Source of the DNA: Sulfurimonas sp.
GTDB lineage: Bacteria > Campylobacterota > Campylobacteria > Campylobacterales > Sulfurimonadaceae
Direction of reading: 5' to 3'
Assembly (NCBI GenBank): GCA_024762705.1
Contig: JANTGW010000064.1
Span: 1-6,134, forward strand
Length of the DNA stretch: 6,134 nucleotides
This document shows positions 1,463-6,134 of this stretch, piece after piece (the first letter of the stretch is position 1; the number at the start of each line of letters is the position of its first letter). A program made the position numbers and the translations under genes. The notes under the pieces are model-generated. The model had not been told where the DNA came from. It did no database searches and was given only the letters and a program-made list of their open reading frames with translations.

Positions 1463-1903
1463 ATGTTAATAGCAATACCACTTACTACAGAATTGAGTAT
1501 TTATCATAACAATCCTTTTACCGCACCACAATTTGGGATTTATTCTATAGAAAAACAAGAACGGAATATTTTATTTCTACAAAAAAACATTGTGCAAAAC
1601 CCATGGAGTAAAACTAATGATACAAGTTTTGATGAAGAGCAGATTACATGTAGTTGTACACCAGAAAAACAGTGTGAATTGACACATATGGTGCAGCATT
1701 ACGGTTTAGCAGATTTACTTAGTAGCTGTACGTATCTGTTGGCAGATAAAAGATGTGACAATATAGCAAATACATTTCAAAAATTGCATATTAAGCTCTA
1801 TAAGATTCCGGCAATCATAAAAGATCCAAAAAGTGCTATAAAAAATTTAATCATAGGAGTTTCTCTTGCAGATCACATACAAGACATCCATTATGCATCT
1901 TGA
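1463..1903 (+). CDS. NifX/NifB-type iron-molybdenum cofactor domain protein
   Basis: This 146-residue cytoplasmic protein resembles the dinitrogenase Fe-Mo cofactor biosynthesis domain shared by NifX, NafY, VnfX and the C-terminus of NifB. Members bind or carry NifB-co or FeMo-co precursors. The N-terminal strand MLIAIPLTTE is followed by a segment (about 14-26, HNNPFTAPQFGIY) aligning with the usual QHFG-x-(A/S)-x-x-FAIY motif. The C-terminal half (about 77-131, YGLADLLSSCTYLLAD to SAIKNL) matches the family pattern of a helix, a 'cysteine-or-aspartate-valine' strand and the IKLYKIP strand. The usual HFGR-type motif is degenerate (HNNPF). A middle insert carries C63, C65 and C71 (CxCx5C), which could bind a metal or cluster. 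It is the first gene of the rightward operon, and its 3' end overlaps the next gene by 38 nt. The family is fairly certain; which subfamily (NifX or another) is not. Confidence 0.75.
   Translation: MLIAIPLTTELSIYHNNPFTAPQFGIYSIEKQERNILFLQKNIVQNPWSKTNDTSFDEEQITCSCTPEKQCELTHMVQHYGLADLLSSCTYLLADKRCDNIANTFQKLHIKLYKIPAIIKDPKSAIKNLIIGVSLADHIQDIHYAS
1855..1859 (+). promoter_or_regulatory. Ribosome binding site supporting a TTG start
   Basis: AGGAG, inside the 3' end of the NifX-like gene, stands six nt before TTG 1866. The alternative in-frame ATG at 1893 has no recognisable Shine-Dalgarno before it (sequence ACAAGACATCCATT). I therefore favour TTG 1866 for the Tpx-like gene, giving translational coupling to the upstream gene. 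Confidence 0.6.
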
Positions 1904-2378
1904 TGAAGACCCATTGGATATAGGCTATGCATCTGAAAAGATAAAAGTCAATACGTACGCAGGTAATGAAATAGAAATTGGCGGACAAAATGGCAAAACG
2001 CAACTTTTTCTTACTTTACCAAACATTGATGAAAAAAATCTTGAAGAGCTTATGTTTATCAAAAAGAATGTATTGCAGTCATTTGATGCCTGCAATACAT
2101 ATATTATCACTTCAAAAAAATATAAAAATGTTTTTAAGGATGAAAAAATACAATTTACACAAGACAGCGAAGGTGAAATGGGTGATTTTTATGGCACCCG
2201 AATCGCAGATGGAGAGCTTGCAGGGAATCAAACAAAAGCACTCATACTTATTAGTAAGGACGGAGCGATATTTTACGATGAGTTTCTGAGTGATCTCACG
2301 CAAACATTTAATCAAGATACACTTTACAGAAAACTAAAAGCAGCTGATGAGTGCTACACAGGAAAAGGATGTCACTAA
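1866..2378 (+). CDS. Tpx-type peroxiredoxin-like protein lacking the peroxidatic Cys
   Basis: The 170-residue protein (161 if started at ATG 1893) aligns by eye with thiol peroxidase Tpx. VNTYAGNEIEIGG (28-40) matches the Tpx N-terminal hairpin. LFLTLPNIDEKNL (47-59) matches the active-site strand, written FPSIDTGVC in E. coli Tpx. YGTRIADGELAG (109-120) is very close to the Tpx YGVAIADGPLKG, and the following strand, helix and 'YRKLKAA' end as Tpx does. The peroxidatic Cys position is occupied by L59, and the segment bearing the Tpx resolving Cys (RFCGAEG) is missing. About 25 residues are also absent between the hairpin and the active-site strand. Cysteines present are C76 and a C-terminal pair C163/C169 in CYTGKGCH. 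Classical peroxidase activity is therefore unlikely; binding, scaffold or a different thiol chemistry is inferred. It overlaps both neighbours. Confidence 0.7.
   Translation: MQITYKTSIMHLDEDPLDIGYASEKIKVNTYAGNEIEIGGQNGKTQLFLTLPNIDEKNLEELMFIKKNVLQSFDACNTYIITSKKYKNVFKDEKIQFTQDSEGEMGDFYGTRIADGELAGNQTKALILISKDGAIFYDEFLSDLTQTFNQDTLYRKLKAADECYTGKGCH
2068..2100. repeat. Perfect 11-bp inverted repeat inside the Tpx-like gene
   Basis: ATGTATTGCAG (2068-2078) and CTGCAATACAT (2090-2100) are exact reverse complements around an 11-nt loop. As RNA this would form a strong hairpin within the coding region. No T-run follows, so a Rho-independent terminator is unlikely. Function is unknown. Confidence 0.6.
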
Positions 2379-3208
2379 TGCAGACAAAAATACAACAGAT
2401 AAAAGCAGAGATACGAAACCAGATATGCATACCATATTTTGGACTAGGAATCTTCAAAGAGACGAAAACAAAAGATGGTGAACAGATGCCCTATGATTCT
2501 GATTCAATGATACTAATGATGAACAGCGGAAGAGCTATGAGTCCAAGACTTATGTTTGAATACTCCCGTGCTGCAATGCACCTTGAACAGCGTCGTGGTG
2601 TTGAGTATATACAACAGATGATGAATTGGATCTATACAAAAGATTTTGAGCCGACACCATTGCAAAAAACAATTGTTGATATGTCGTCACGTTTTATTGT
2701 TGATACAAACCGCGATTCAAAGATTCAGGAACTCTTAGCATATGAACCACATTGTCTCATAATGGGAAAAGCCAGAATTATGGCCGAAGAAAATCGTTAT
2801 GTAATTTATGAATATGATACTGAAAATAAAAAATATTTTGAAGTGGAAGAAGAAGTTTTGGAAAATGCAAAAAAAATTCTCTTTAAACCGCTTGGTTCAA
2901 CACTACCAGAACCTAGTTTTGTAATCTCAGATGCGGATTATGTTGACTGGCTTACAGAAGCCATGGGTGGTTTTGCAGTTCCTCCAATAATAAAAACATA
3001 TCGTAAAACAAAAAAATACCTTTTTCTAGGAACTTTATTTGATCGTGATACTGACAGAATGGTCGCTAATGAGCTGACACTCGATCTTGAAGGCGGTTAT
3101 GTCATCAATGATCAGCCGCTTTCAAAAAAAGAGGAAAAATTCATCAAACGACACAACCTCGAACTTCTTGAGATGTCGCTAGAAGAGTTTACTAAAGAAT
3201 TTATTTAA
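2378..3208 (+). CDS. SIR2-like domain protein of the nif-cluster type
   Basis: This 276-residue protein resembles, from memory, the conserved 'SIR2-like' protein found in proteobacterial nif clusters, including that of Azotobacter. Recognisable blocks are IPYFGLGIFKETKTKDG (18-34), the PYDSDSMILMMNSGR block (38-52), PRLMFEYSRAAMHLEQRRG (56-74), LFKPLGSTLPEPSFV (168-182), SDADYVDWLTEAMGGFAVPP (184-203) and YLFLG with DTDRMV further on. The FKPLGS...SDADYV pattern corresponds to the (L)HGS...seeDY pattern of SIR2-like domains, but the catalytic His before Gly is a Leu (L172). NAD-cleaving activity is therefore doubtful, which is my inference. There is no signal or membrane segment. ATG 2378 overlaps the previous TAA (TAATG) and follows AAGGA by eight nt; an upstream in-frame GTG (2351) has no such support. 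Its biochemical role is unknown; the conserved pairing with nif genes is the main clue. Confidence 0.7.
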   Translation: MQTKIQQIKAEIRNQICIPYFGLGIFKETKTKDGEQMPYDSDSMILMMNSGRAMSPRLMFEYSRAAMHLEQRRGVEYIQQMMNWIYTKDFEPTPLQKTIVDMSSRFIVDTNRDSKIQELLAYEPHCLIMGKARIMAEENRYVIYEYDTENKKYFEVEEEVLENAKKILFKPLGSTLPEPSFVISDADYVDWLTEAMGGFAVPPIIKTYRKTKKYLFLGTLFDRDTDRMVANELTLDLEGGYVINDQPLSKKEEKFIKRHNLELLEMSLEEFTKEFI

Positions 3209-5038: not shown

Positions 5039-5039
5039 T

Positions 5040-6134
5040 ATGCGTGTATATCTTGACAATAATGCCACAACAAAACTAGACCCACTGGTAAAAACAAAAA
5101 TGGAACCGTTTTTTGAAGAACTTTATGGGAATCCTAATTCACTTCATGCATACGGTATTGAAGTACGTCCAGCACTCAATGAGGCTATGGGTTATATGTA
5201 TGATGCCATGAATGTTGCTGATGAAGATGATATTTTAATTACTTCATGTGCTACTGAAAGTAATAATACCGTACTCAAAGGAGTGTTTTTTAAATATATT
5301 CTCAAAAATCCGGAAAAAAATCACATAGTGACAACAGCAGTTGAACATCCTGCAATTTTAGATACTCTGAGGTTTTTAGAAAACTATGGTGTTGAAGTTA
5401 GCTATATTGATGTGGATGAAACAGGAGCTGTCAGTGCTGAGGCAATTCAAAATGCGGTAACGGACAAAACAATTCTCATATCTATGATGTGGGCTAACAA
5501 CGAAACAGGAATGATCTTTCCTGTCAAAGAAGTAAGTGAATTTGCAAAAGAAAAAGGAATTCTTTTTCACACTGATGCCGTGCAAGCAATCGGGAAAATT
5601 CCAGTTAACCTTCAGGATGTTTATGTAGATTACCTTACATTTTCTGCGCACAAGTTTCATGGTCCAAAAGGTATTGGCGGGCTTGTGGTCAAAAAAGGCA
5701 AAACCTTGCCAAATCTTTTACATGGCGGGGAGCAGATGAGTGGAAAACGTGCCGGAACACTCAATGTCGCCTATATTATAGGGATGGGTATCGCGATGAA
5801 ACAATCAACAGACCATGTCTCTATTATGAATACAAAAATAAGAGCGCTTCGTGACCGTCTTGAAGATGAACTGAGTAAAATCTCTGACACCATTATTGTG
5901 GGTCCAAGAGAAAACCGTACACCAAATACCATACTTATTTCACTCAAAGGTATTGAAGGTGAATCAATGCTGTGGGATCTCAACCGTGCCGGGATTGCAG
6001 CTTCAACAGGAAGTGCATGTGCTTCAGAATCTCTAGAAGCGAATCCGATCATGAATGCAATCGGTGAAGATCCAGAACTTGCACATACTGCGATTAGGCT
6101 TTCGCTTTCAAGGTTTACAACAAAAGAGGAGATA
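5040..6134 (+). CDS. nifS: Cysteine desulfurase NifS, 3' end cut by window edge
   Basis: PLP-dependent cytoplasmic enzyme that converts L-cysteine to alanine and delivers persulfide sulfur for Fe-S cluster assembly, usually onto NifU. I translated 365 codons open to the right edge. Key residues are present: the YLDNNATTK start, H103 in VEHPAI, WANNETG, D179 and Q182 in [10 protein letters not shown], the PLP lysine K205 in [17 protein letters not shown], and the catalytic Cys C327 in GSACASE. It ends at [13 protein letters not shown], so about 30-35 residues are missing from a normal ~400. ATG 5040 is one nt after the clpX stop, with GAGGAGG (5024-5030) upstream. The sequence closely resembles Campylobacterota NifS as I recall it. 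In that phylum NifS/NifU can be the housekeeping Fe-S system, so it may serve the whole cell as well as nitrogenase. nifU would be expected next. Confidence 0.96.

What the first reader, a model, noticed from the sequence alone, without database searches (positions are those of the whole stretch)
1463..6134. Cofactor-assembly and dedicated ClpXP operon
A NifX-type domain protein, a Tpx-like protein, a SIR2-like protein, ClpP, ClpX and NifS sit head to tail with overlaps or gaps of at most 15 nt. A nif-linked ClpX is known in Azotobacter vinelandii (ClpX2), but a whole dedicated ClpXP fused in one operon with cofactor carriers and the sulfur donor is less familiar. I infer a protease system that removes damaged or surplus nitrogenase-assembly proteins, with the two middle proteins as possible adaptors or cluster holders.
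Basis: partly seen in the sequence, partly recalled or inferred. Interest (0 to 1): 0.75.

Follow-up and report, generated by a model that had tools for sequence, protein, structure and literature searches.

The report
Nitrogenase-linked ClpXP operon with dead sirtuin
In nitrogen-fixing relatives of Campylobacter, a spare protein-shredding machine with an altered entrance is encoded in one operon with nitrogenase-assembly proteins and a sirtuin-like protein that has lost a catalytic residue, which suggests a dedicated way of removing or regulating nitrogenase-building proteins.

The parts
1411..1426 (+). nif-promoter-like element (N-R-GAA-Y-N6-TGC-W; resembles a -24/-12 sigma-54 site with A in place of the first G)
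   Evidence: Pattern within 150 nt upstream of nifH 16 of 17, nifB 36 of 45, NifX-type operon head 30 of 39, versus 10 of 323 other ORFs of 150 codons or more and 0 for ClpP (53), ClpX (57), NifS (52). It also occurs before Tpx-like (14 of 48) and SIR2-like (17 of 62) genes; of 17 SIR2 and 13 Tpx hits re-examined, only one lies inside the NifX-type gene, the rest in intergenic stretches or other small ORFs. The pattern was chosen after looking at operon heads, so the nifH, nifB and control counts are the independent ones.
1463..1903 (+). NifX-type carrier-like protein (146 aa); invariant C65, H75, H79, C98
1866..2378 (+). Tpx-like (thioredoxin-fold family) protein without peroxidatic Cys; C-terminal CYTGKGCH
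   Evidence: NF045827 perox_SUH E 1.2e-11, far below its cut-off (44.3 vs 298 bits); the peroxidatic column is a gap in 70 of 71 aligned rows, the 71st being a true Tpx paralogue; 3 of the 70 have a Cys within six columns; Y-x-G-x-GCH end in 69 of 71 rows
2378..3208 (+). Nif-SIR2: SIR2-fold protein without the catalytic His (KPLG where active SIR2_2 proteins have KxHG)
3224..3820 (+). Dedicated ClpP (ClpP2), Ser-His-Asp motifs intact
   Evidence: NF001368 over cut-off; triad motifs in 58 of 58 nif-type rows; second copy in 41 of 50 genomes
3821..5038 (+). Dedicated ClpX (ClpX2) with changed degron-contact residues
   Evidence: TIGR00382 over cut-off; T199 to G and H230 to N/S/E in 87 of 87 nif-type rows; one clade, SH-aLRT 100
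5040..6134 (+). Dedicated NifS cysteine desulfurase, 3' end cut by the contig
   Evidence: TIGR03403 589.9 bits, cut-off 587.7; 20 of 22 window-type genomes have two or more matches, the other one usually scoring higher

Best explanation
This is a nif-regulon operon of diazotrophic Campylobacterota. It supplies, next to the housekeeping set, its own NifS (sulfur donor), a NifX-type cofactor carrier, a thioredoxin-fold protein that has lost its peroxidase cysteine but keeps a Cys-His tail, a SIR2-fold protein without the catalytic His, and a ClpXP protease. SHOWN (on sequence): co-occurrence with nifH, second copies, conserved residue switches, retained ATPase, pore, docking and protease motifs, shared promoter-like element. 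INFERRED: the dedicated ClpX no longer prefers ssrA-type tails; the Nif-SIR2 protein brings clients to it (or holds them back); and the clients are nitrogenase-assembly proteins (NifB, NifEN) and perhaps NifA, removed when oxidised, cluster-less or no longer needed. The NifX-type and Tpx-like proteins would hold clusters or precursors released meanwhile. Where the dedicated ClpP is missing, the dedicated ClpX would use the housekeeping ClpP, as its docking loop is kept in most rows.
For: nifH association of the SIR2-like protein (Fisher p 3e-46, not corrected for kinship) and of dedicated ClpX (p 7e-32). Dedicated ClpX has SIR2-like in 49 of 50 genomes, SIR2-like occurs without it in 18: a one-way dependence, as expected if ClpX2 works with or through SIR2. 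Neighbours: nifB, nifH and nifD over NCBIfam cut-offs on representatives, nifV just below; a NifA-like gene (best model nifA, below its cut-off) just upstream in Arcobacter-type loci. ClpX2 switches at T199 and H230, two of the six residues that PMC7652416 (passages) names as critical for substrate binding and specificity; the same passages say human ClpX, with Leu at both, does not degrade ssrA-tagged proteins. Pore-1 GYVG 87 of 87, Walker A GP[TS]GSGKT 87 of 87, xGF docking loop 84 of 87. ClpP triad motifs 58 of 58. Promoter-like element shared with nifH and nifB. Precedent: ClpX2 control of NifB and NifEN levels in A. vinelandii (Martinez-Noel 2011: title in reference lists and one citing sentence).
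Against: No substrate, binding or expression data. ClpP is not part of the constant core, so proteolysis by a dedicated ClpP is not general. Four loci keep Tpx-SIR2-NifS with no ClpP or ClpX (L050, L051, L053, L054) and 18 of 67 SIR2-bearing genomes lack the dedicated ClpX (G150 and G202 among them have broken or contig-end genes), so SIR2 must have a use without it. G071 has the dedicated ClpX beside nifB without SIR2. The six proteobacterial neighbourhoods read have the SIR2-like protein and no annotated clpX (that gene table is incomplete). The docking loop reads VGL in 3 of 87 rows. In print, Azoarcus BH72 clpX/clpP (azo2070/azo2071) are NifA-controlled (PMC3916325 passages); whether these are extra copies was not checked.
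Confidence: 0.55

Rival explanations
1. The main client is the activator NifA, so the module is a regulatory off-switch rather than quality control: SIR2-like plus ClpX2 clear NifA when N2 fixation must stop.
For: In the Arcobacter-type locus L066 a NifA-like gene (TIGR01817 501 bits, cut-off 529) lies directly before Tpx-SIR2-ClpX; in L065 one (495 bits) lies directly before SIR2. In rhizobial plasmids SIR2 lies a few genes from nifA and nifB.
Against: In the window's own type the usual neighbour is nifB, not nifA. L065 has NifA-like and SIR2 but no ClpX; L070, L074 and L079 look alike, with a protein of similar size in that place that was not profiled.
Confidence: 0.17
2. ClpX2 acts mainly as an unfoldase or remodelling chaperone in cofactor or apo-protein assembly, without proteolysis.
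For: Many loci have ClpX2 without a dedicated ClpP (for example L066, L069, L097; L059, L060).
Against: The docking loop is kept in 84 of 87 rows, housekeeping ClpP is present in 49 of 50 genomes, and the window's type adds a second ClpP with intact triad motifs.
Confidence: 0.13
3. Ordinary extra copies for dosage: the operon just raises protease and NifS capacity during N2 fixation, with no special substrate choice.
For: nif clusters often carry duplicated housekeeping functions (recalled); Azoarcus BH72 up-regulates a clpX and clpP about 2-fold under N2 fixation (PMC3916325 passages).
Against: The window's ClpX is only 46-51% identical to 20 housekeeping copies, and the nif type differs at two degron-contact positions in 87 of 87 rows.
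Confidence: 0.1
4. The SIR2-like protein is a captured NAD-depleting defence effector (ThsA/DSR2 type) guarding the nif cluster.
For: Best fold matches are ThsA, KomC, DSR2.
Against: The catalytic His is absent in all Campylobacterota rows examined (144 of 144); 98 of 120 listed Proteobacterial relatives lack both residues, 18 could not be parsed. No PADLOC model matched it. It tracks nifH.
Confidence: 0.03

Closest known systems
Nif-linked ClpX2 of Azotobacter vinelandii (Martinez-Noel 2011; title in reference lists and one citing sentence seen; paper not held)
   Same: A second ClpX tied to nitrogen fixation that controls NifB and NifEN levels, by its title.
   Different: Here ClpX2 sits with SIR2-like and often ClpP in one operon. 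Azotobacter ClpX2 could not be fetched, so orthology and its degron residues were not tested. That it has no dedicated ClpP beside it is recalled, not seen.
NifA-controlled clpX/clpP of Azoarcus BH72 (azo2070, azo2071; PMC3916325 passages)
   Same: ClpX and ClpP induced with N2 fixation.
   Different: No SIR2-like, NifX or Tpx-like partner in the passages seen; whether these are extra copies was not checked.
SIR2-like proteins of proteobacterial nif clusters (ZMO1821, Rcc03262, PST_1325, Rhodovulum; PMC8594446, PMC6925177, PMC11332353, PMC9412634; passages)
   Same: SIR2-domain protein in a nif cluster; Rcc03262 not found in the nifA deletion strain (table). Full-length homologues in rhizobial and Methylococcus nif clusters found by tblastn.
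   Different: The homologues listed are about 22-28% identical; the six neighbourhoods read have no annotated clpX; catalytic Asn is Trp there, whereas Campylobacterota mostly keep Asn and lose His. The four named proteins themselves were not fetched.
SIR2 NADases ThsA, DSR2, KomC
   Different: Catalytic His replaced by Met or Leu; no defence context seen.
NifX / NafY cofactor carriers
   Same: Fold.
   Different: No sequence-profile match; cluster ligands unproven.

Membership tests
ClpX | Zinc finger, Walker A/B, GYVG pore loop, xGF docking loop, sensor 2 | tested here: met
   TIGR00382 and PF06689 over cut-off in the window; motif columns in 87 nif-type rows; docking loop xGF in 84 of 87, VGL in 3; the window has VGF
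ClpX | ssrA-contact residues T199 and H230 (E. coli numbering) | tested here: not met
   G199 in 87 of 87; N 81, S 5, E 1 at 230; housekeeping T and H in 20 of 20, outgroups 5 of 5. A specificity feature, not a fold feature, so the ClpX filing stands.
ClpP | Ser-His-Asp triad motifs | tested here: met
   58 of 58 nif-type rows
ClpP | Score over the equivalog model TIGR00493 | tested here: not met
   247.7 vs 308.6 bits; the subfamily model NF001368 is met, 270.1 vs 249. So a ClpP, but a divergent one.
NifS family cysteine desulfurase (TIGR03403) | Score over curated cut-off | tested here: met
   589.9 vs 587.7 bits for the cut protein
NifX/NafY FeMo-co-binding domain | Fold | tested here: met
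NifX/NafY FeMo-co-binding domain | Match to a curated sequence profile | tested here: not met
   no Pfam match up to E 1 and no NCBIfam match up to E 0.1
NifX/NafY FeMo-co-binding domain | Binding of FeMo-co, NifB-co or VK-cluster | not testable with these tools
   needs purified protein
SIR2 NADase / deacylase | SIR2 fold | tested here: met
   SIR2_2 over cut-off in relatives, below it in the window
SIR2 NADase / deacylase | Catalytic Asn and His | tested here: not met
   His absent in 144 of 144; Asn kept in 137 of 144. The His column was assigned by motif match with active SIR2_2 proteins from the same order, as profile alignment failed
Thiol peroxidase Tpx | Peroxidatic Cys | tested here: not met
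   gap at that column in 70 of 71; the 71st is a true Tpx
Nif-linked ClpX2 (Azotobacter type) | Second ClpX linked to nif genes | tested here: met
   on relatives; the window's own genome is not held
Nif-linked ClpX2 (Azotobacter type) | Orthology with Azotobacter ClpX2 | not tested
Nif-linked ClpX2 (Azotobacter type) | Controls NifB/NifEN levels | not testable with these tools
   needs mutants

The most novel reading that the evidence does not exclude
Nif-SIR2 is a pseudo-enzyme of nitrogen fixation spread over at least Campylobacterota and Proteobacteria, reached by loss of different catalytic residues (His in Campylobacterota; Asn alone or with His in Proteobacteria). It reads NAD(H) or an ADP-ribosyl signal, or simply docks clients, and hands nitrogenase-assembly proteins or NifA to a ClpX; Campylobacterota have hard-wired the pair in one operon with a ClpX whose degron-reading loops were rebuilt for it.
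Probability: 0.3. Interest if true: 0.82.

Novelty: new variant of a known kind. Interest (0 to 1): 0.62.

Why it matters
How cells dispose of damaged or surplus nitrogenase-assembly proteins is known, as far as I am aware, mainly from one ClpX2 study in Azotobacter. Here nature has placed a dedicated ClpX, often a dedicated ClpP, and a candidate adaptor in one operon, which makes clients and recognition directly testable. It also gives a first functional lead for the SIR2-like protein that sits in nif clusters of many diazotrophs, and whose proteobacterial members some databases label a NAD-dependent deacylase although the catalytic residues are missing in the rows parsed (names; residues). 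Stable transfer of nif genes to new hosts may depend on such turnover factors (inference).

Tried and rejected
Canonical sigma-54 consensus (TGGCAC-N5-TTGCA) upstream of the operon: only 3 of 61 operon heads exceeded the 95% level of control segments. A TGGAAC-type consensus gave 26 of 50 heads above the 95% level of control segments and 37 of 50 above that of shuffles; the window's own best site was not among them. The final pattern was derived from those heads and then counted on other genes, with the SIR2 and Tpx hits placed.

Profile alignment of Nif-SIR2 with active SIR2_2 proteins by hhalign failed; the His column was assigned by motif instead. Sequence search of the PDB with the SIR2 alignment gave four matches, none below E 0.1 and none a SIR2 protein. 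hhalign of the NifX-like family to NifX and NifB was uninformative, so the fold was predicted instead. A first ClpX tree contained wrong-frame rows (one housekeeping row and outgroup rows); it was replaced by the tree (quick method, no bootstrap, with a warning that long branches meet), so an origin of ClpX2 inside Campylobacterota is not settled.

NADase defence role considered and rejected (see rivals). The idea that ClpXP as a whole is the conserved unit was rejected: ClpP is missing from many loci.

Results against the reading: 8 genomes with SIR2-like but no nifH over cut-off (G045, G051, G067, G149, G150, G202, G291, G311; G150 and G291 have large nifH pieces and G045 a short contig-end piece), and 6 with nifH but no SIR2-like (G064, G071, G074, G156, G191, G327). 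G071 has ClpX2 next to nifB without SIR2. Genomes and aligned rows are kin, so p-values and 'k of n' residue counts overstate independence, and genome completeness is not given. The window gene ald and the small ORF gave no tblastn hit in loci L001-L104.

Absence from print: searches listed no paper that I recognised, from its title, abstract start or the passages read, as describing a SIR2-ClpX nif operon; only the open PMC library was searched. A SIR2-like protein in nif clusters is in print. Paper basis: passages found by term only, for PMC3916325, PMC5715403 (reference list only), PMC12923157, PMC8381380 (reference list only), PMC12029903 (a figure legend), PMC7652416, PMC8594446, PMC4674564, PMC11474244, PMC6925177, PMC9412634, PMC11332353; Martinez-Noel 2011 was not held.
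Full report
WHAT IS THERE. The window is a 6134-base metagenome contig (its SIR2-like protein is found on a single contig of 6134 bases); no whole genome is held for it. Six genes run on the + strand: NifX-type 1463-1903, Tpx-like 1866-2378, SIR2-like 2378-3208, ClpP 3224-3820, ClpX 3821-5038, NifS 5040-6134, the last cut by the contig end. For the Tpx-like gene an AGGAG stretch precedes TTG 1866 and not ATG 1893. Upstream on the - strand lie alanine dehydrogenase and a 70-codon ORF.

WHERE RELATIVES SIT. One scan of representative genomes with an alignment of the SIR2-like protein gave 64 loci, titled as Campylobacterota or as unclassified bacterium or epsilonproteobacterium. 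In these 64 loci plus the window, on the strand of the operon, ClpP was seen in 53, ClpX in 57, NifS in 52, Tpx-like in 47 and NifX-type in 39, and nifB in 44; several loci are short or cut, so absences are not all real. Further out lie nifV, nifH and nifD and GNAT-type acetyltransferases; representatives of nifB, nifH and nifD score over the NCBIfam cut-offs, nifV just below its own (459.7 vs 462.9).

NIF LINK. In 298 Campylobacterales genomes (drawn evenly by the tool) the SIR2-like protein has a match in 67 and nifH is over cut-off in 65: both 59, SIR2 only 8, nifH only 6, neither 225 (Fisher p 3e-46, uncorrected for kinship). Three of the eight SIR2-only genomes show nifH pieces, one of them very short. 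The dedicated ClpX, separated from housekeeping ClpX by a step from 436 to 409 bits in the ranking, is in 50 of 298: 45 with nifH, 5 without; 20 nifH genomes lack it; 228 have neither.

DEDICATED COPIES. ClpP: of 50 genomes searched (of those behind the 64 loci), 49 have a housekeeping copy at 283-299 bits and 41 also the nif-type copy at 207-242 bits. ClpX: in 53 genomes the two kinds score 563-625 and 444-532 bits (one genome, G074, has only contig-end pieces). NifS: 20 of 22 window-type genomes have two or more matches (G049 and G204 one); of the 16 others in the search, 14 have one, G131 two below the cut-off, G191 none, so the dedicated NifS belongs to the window's type. Trees: 45 nif-type ClpX rows form one side of a branch (SH-aLRT 100) and 20 housekeeping rows another (100). 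These were 45 of 87 nif-type rows, chosen by me for spread. For ClpP, 30 of 58 nif-type rows and 16 housekeeping rows also separate with support 100.

CHANGED ENTRANCE. In 87 nif-type ClpX rows, E. coli position 199 is Gly (87 of 87; Thr in 20 of 20 housekeeping and 5 of 5 outgroup rows) and position 230 is Asn 81, Ser 5, Glu 1 (His in 20 of 20 and 5 of 5). Tyr153, Val154, Arg200 and Lys229 are unchanged, Val202 is kept in 86, Arg228 in 85. PMC7652416 (passages) lists Tyr153, Val154, Thr199, Val202, Arg228 and His230 as critical for substrate binding and specificity, and states that human ClpX, with Leu at 199 and 230, does not degrade ssrA-tagged proteins but a hybrid with E. coli pore-2 and RKH loops does. 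From this I infer reduced ssrA recognition; it was not measured. Walker A and B and GYVG are kept, the docking loop reads xGF in 84 of 87 rows and VGL in 3, and ClpP triad motifs are present in 58 of 58 nif-type rows. The rows are kin and include near-copies.

IT IS WIDER THAN CAMPYLOBACTEROTA. tblastn with the window protein and with an Arcobacter-type relative each matched 73 of 72,556 plasmid records, all from Rhizobium, Sinorhizobium, Mesorhizobium, Bradyrhizobium, Methylococcus, Paraburkholderia or Microvirga. Six neighbourhoods were read and all six are nif clusters, five with nifT directly before the SIR2 gene, none with an annotated clpX (the plasmid gene table is incomplete). In 120 listed proteobacterial relatives, 98 have Trp for Asn and Leu for His, 18 could not be parsed and 4 differ otherwise; the five rhizobial sequences have Trp for Asn but keep a His. 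None of the rows that could be parsed has both residues. Papers mention SIR2-like nif-cluster proteins: ZMO1821 (PMC8594446, passage), Rcc03262, not found in the nifA deletion strain (PMC6925177, table), a Rhodovulum operon (PMC9412634, legend) and PST_1325 listed beside nifH (PMC11332353, table); the passages seen give no function. I did not fetch these four proteins, so their membership of this family is likely, not shown.

ONE-WAY DEPENDENCE. Dedicated ClpX occurs with SIR2-like in 49 of 50 genomes, whereas 18 SIR2-bearing genomes lack it (two of the 18, G150 and G202, have broken or contig-end genes). Loci L050, L051, L053 and L054 keep Tpx-SIR2-NifS with neither ClpP nor ClpX, and their genomes G041-G044 show a single ClpX and no nif-type ClpP. 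Arcobacter-type loci such as L066 have a NifA-like gene, Tpx, SIR2 and ClpX without ClpP. So dedicated ClpX goes with SIR2, dedicated ClpP is an addition, and SIR2 has a use of its own.

REGULATION. An element N-R-GAA-Y-N6-TGC-W lies within 150 nt upstream of nifH 16 of 17, nifB 36 of 45 and the NifX-type head 30 of 39, against 10 of 323 other ORFs and 0 of 162 for ClpP, ClpX and NifS together. It also precedes some Tpx-like (14 of 48) and SIR2-like genes (17 of 62), mostly about 48 nt upstream and outside the genes before them, as if the SIR2 gene had its own promoter in some loci. The window copy is 1411-1426. This supports membership of the nif regulon; no transcript data exist here.

VERDICT. 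The function as protease of assembly proteins is the best reading (0.55); client, adaptor and cluster-holder roles remain inference. Against earlier knowledge it is a new variant of nif-linked Clp proteolysis; the freshest element is the pseudo-SIR2 coupled to a ClpX with altered degron contacts.

Noticed in passing
window 1353-1368, - strand: TGGCATGTTTTATGCA, a good GG-N10-GC sigma-54-like site facing the small ORF (1102-1314) and alanine dehydrogenase (1-1089).
   Followed up: no
window 1-1314: Alanine dehydrogenase and a 70-codon Cys-containing ORF sit where many relatives have nifB; tblastn found neither in loci L001-L104.
   Followed up: partly
upstream of nifH, nifB, operon heads and cluster 17 in L001-L064: Nif-linked promoter-like element with A where sigma-54 promoters usually have the first G; cluster 17 (188 aa representative, no family match) has it in 14 of 16.
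   Followed up: partly
L018, L021, L027, L034, L036, L039, L042, L044 and others: The SIR2-like gene has the same element about 48 nt upstream, as if it had a promoter of its own there.
   Followed up: partly
rhizobial and Methylococcus nif clusters, L158-L163: Nif-SIR2 family proteins, some relatives named NAD-dependent protein deacylase in databases, lack catalytic Asn or both catalytic residues.
   Followed up: yes
L042:18409-19137 and cluster 16 of other loci: A Sel1-repeat protein with a C-terminal NifU-like domain near nifX and ferredoxins, with the nif element in 9 of 15.
   Followed up: no
L066:10249-13013 and other Arcobacter-type loci: A fumarate-reductase-like flavoprotein and an aldo/keto-reductase-like protein stand just before the NifA-like gene.
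   Followed up: no
L001-L064, clusters 8 and 10: Two GNAT-type acetyltransferases are regular members of the nif cluster, one of them next to nifV.
   Followed up: no
L101 (G150): nifH, SIR2-like and ClpX, and apparently other nif genes, occur in pieces, either decay or sequencing error.
   Followed up: no
L028 and L030 (both from isolate STA_65): The same Sulfuricurvum genome holds the whole region on two contigs with the same gene order; two nif-type ClpX copies also (G023).
   Followed up: no
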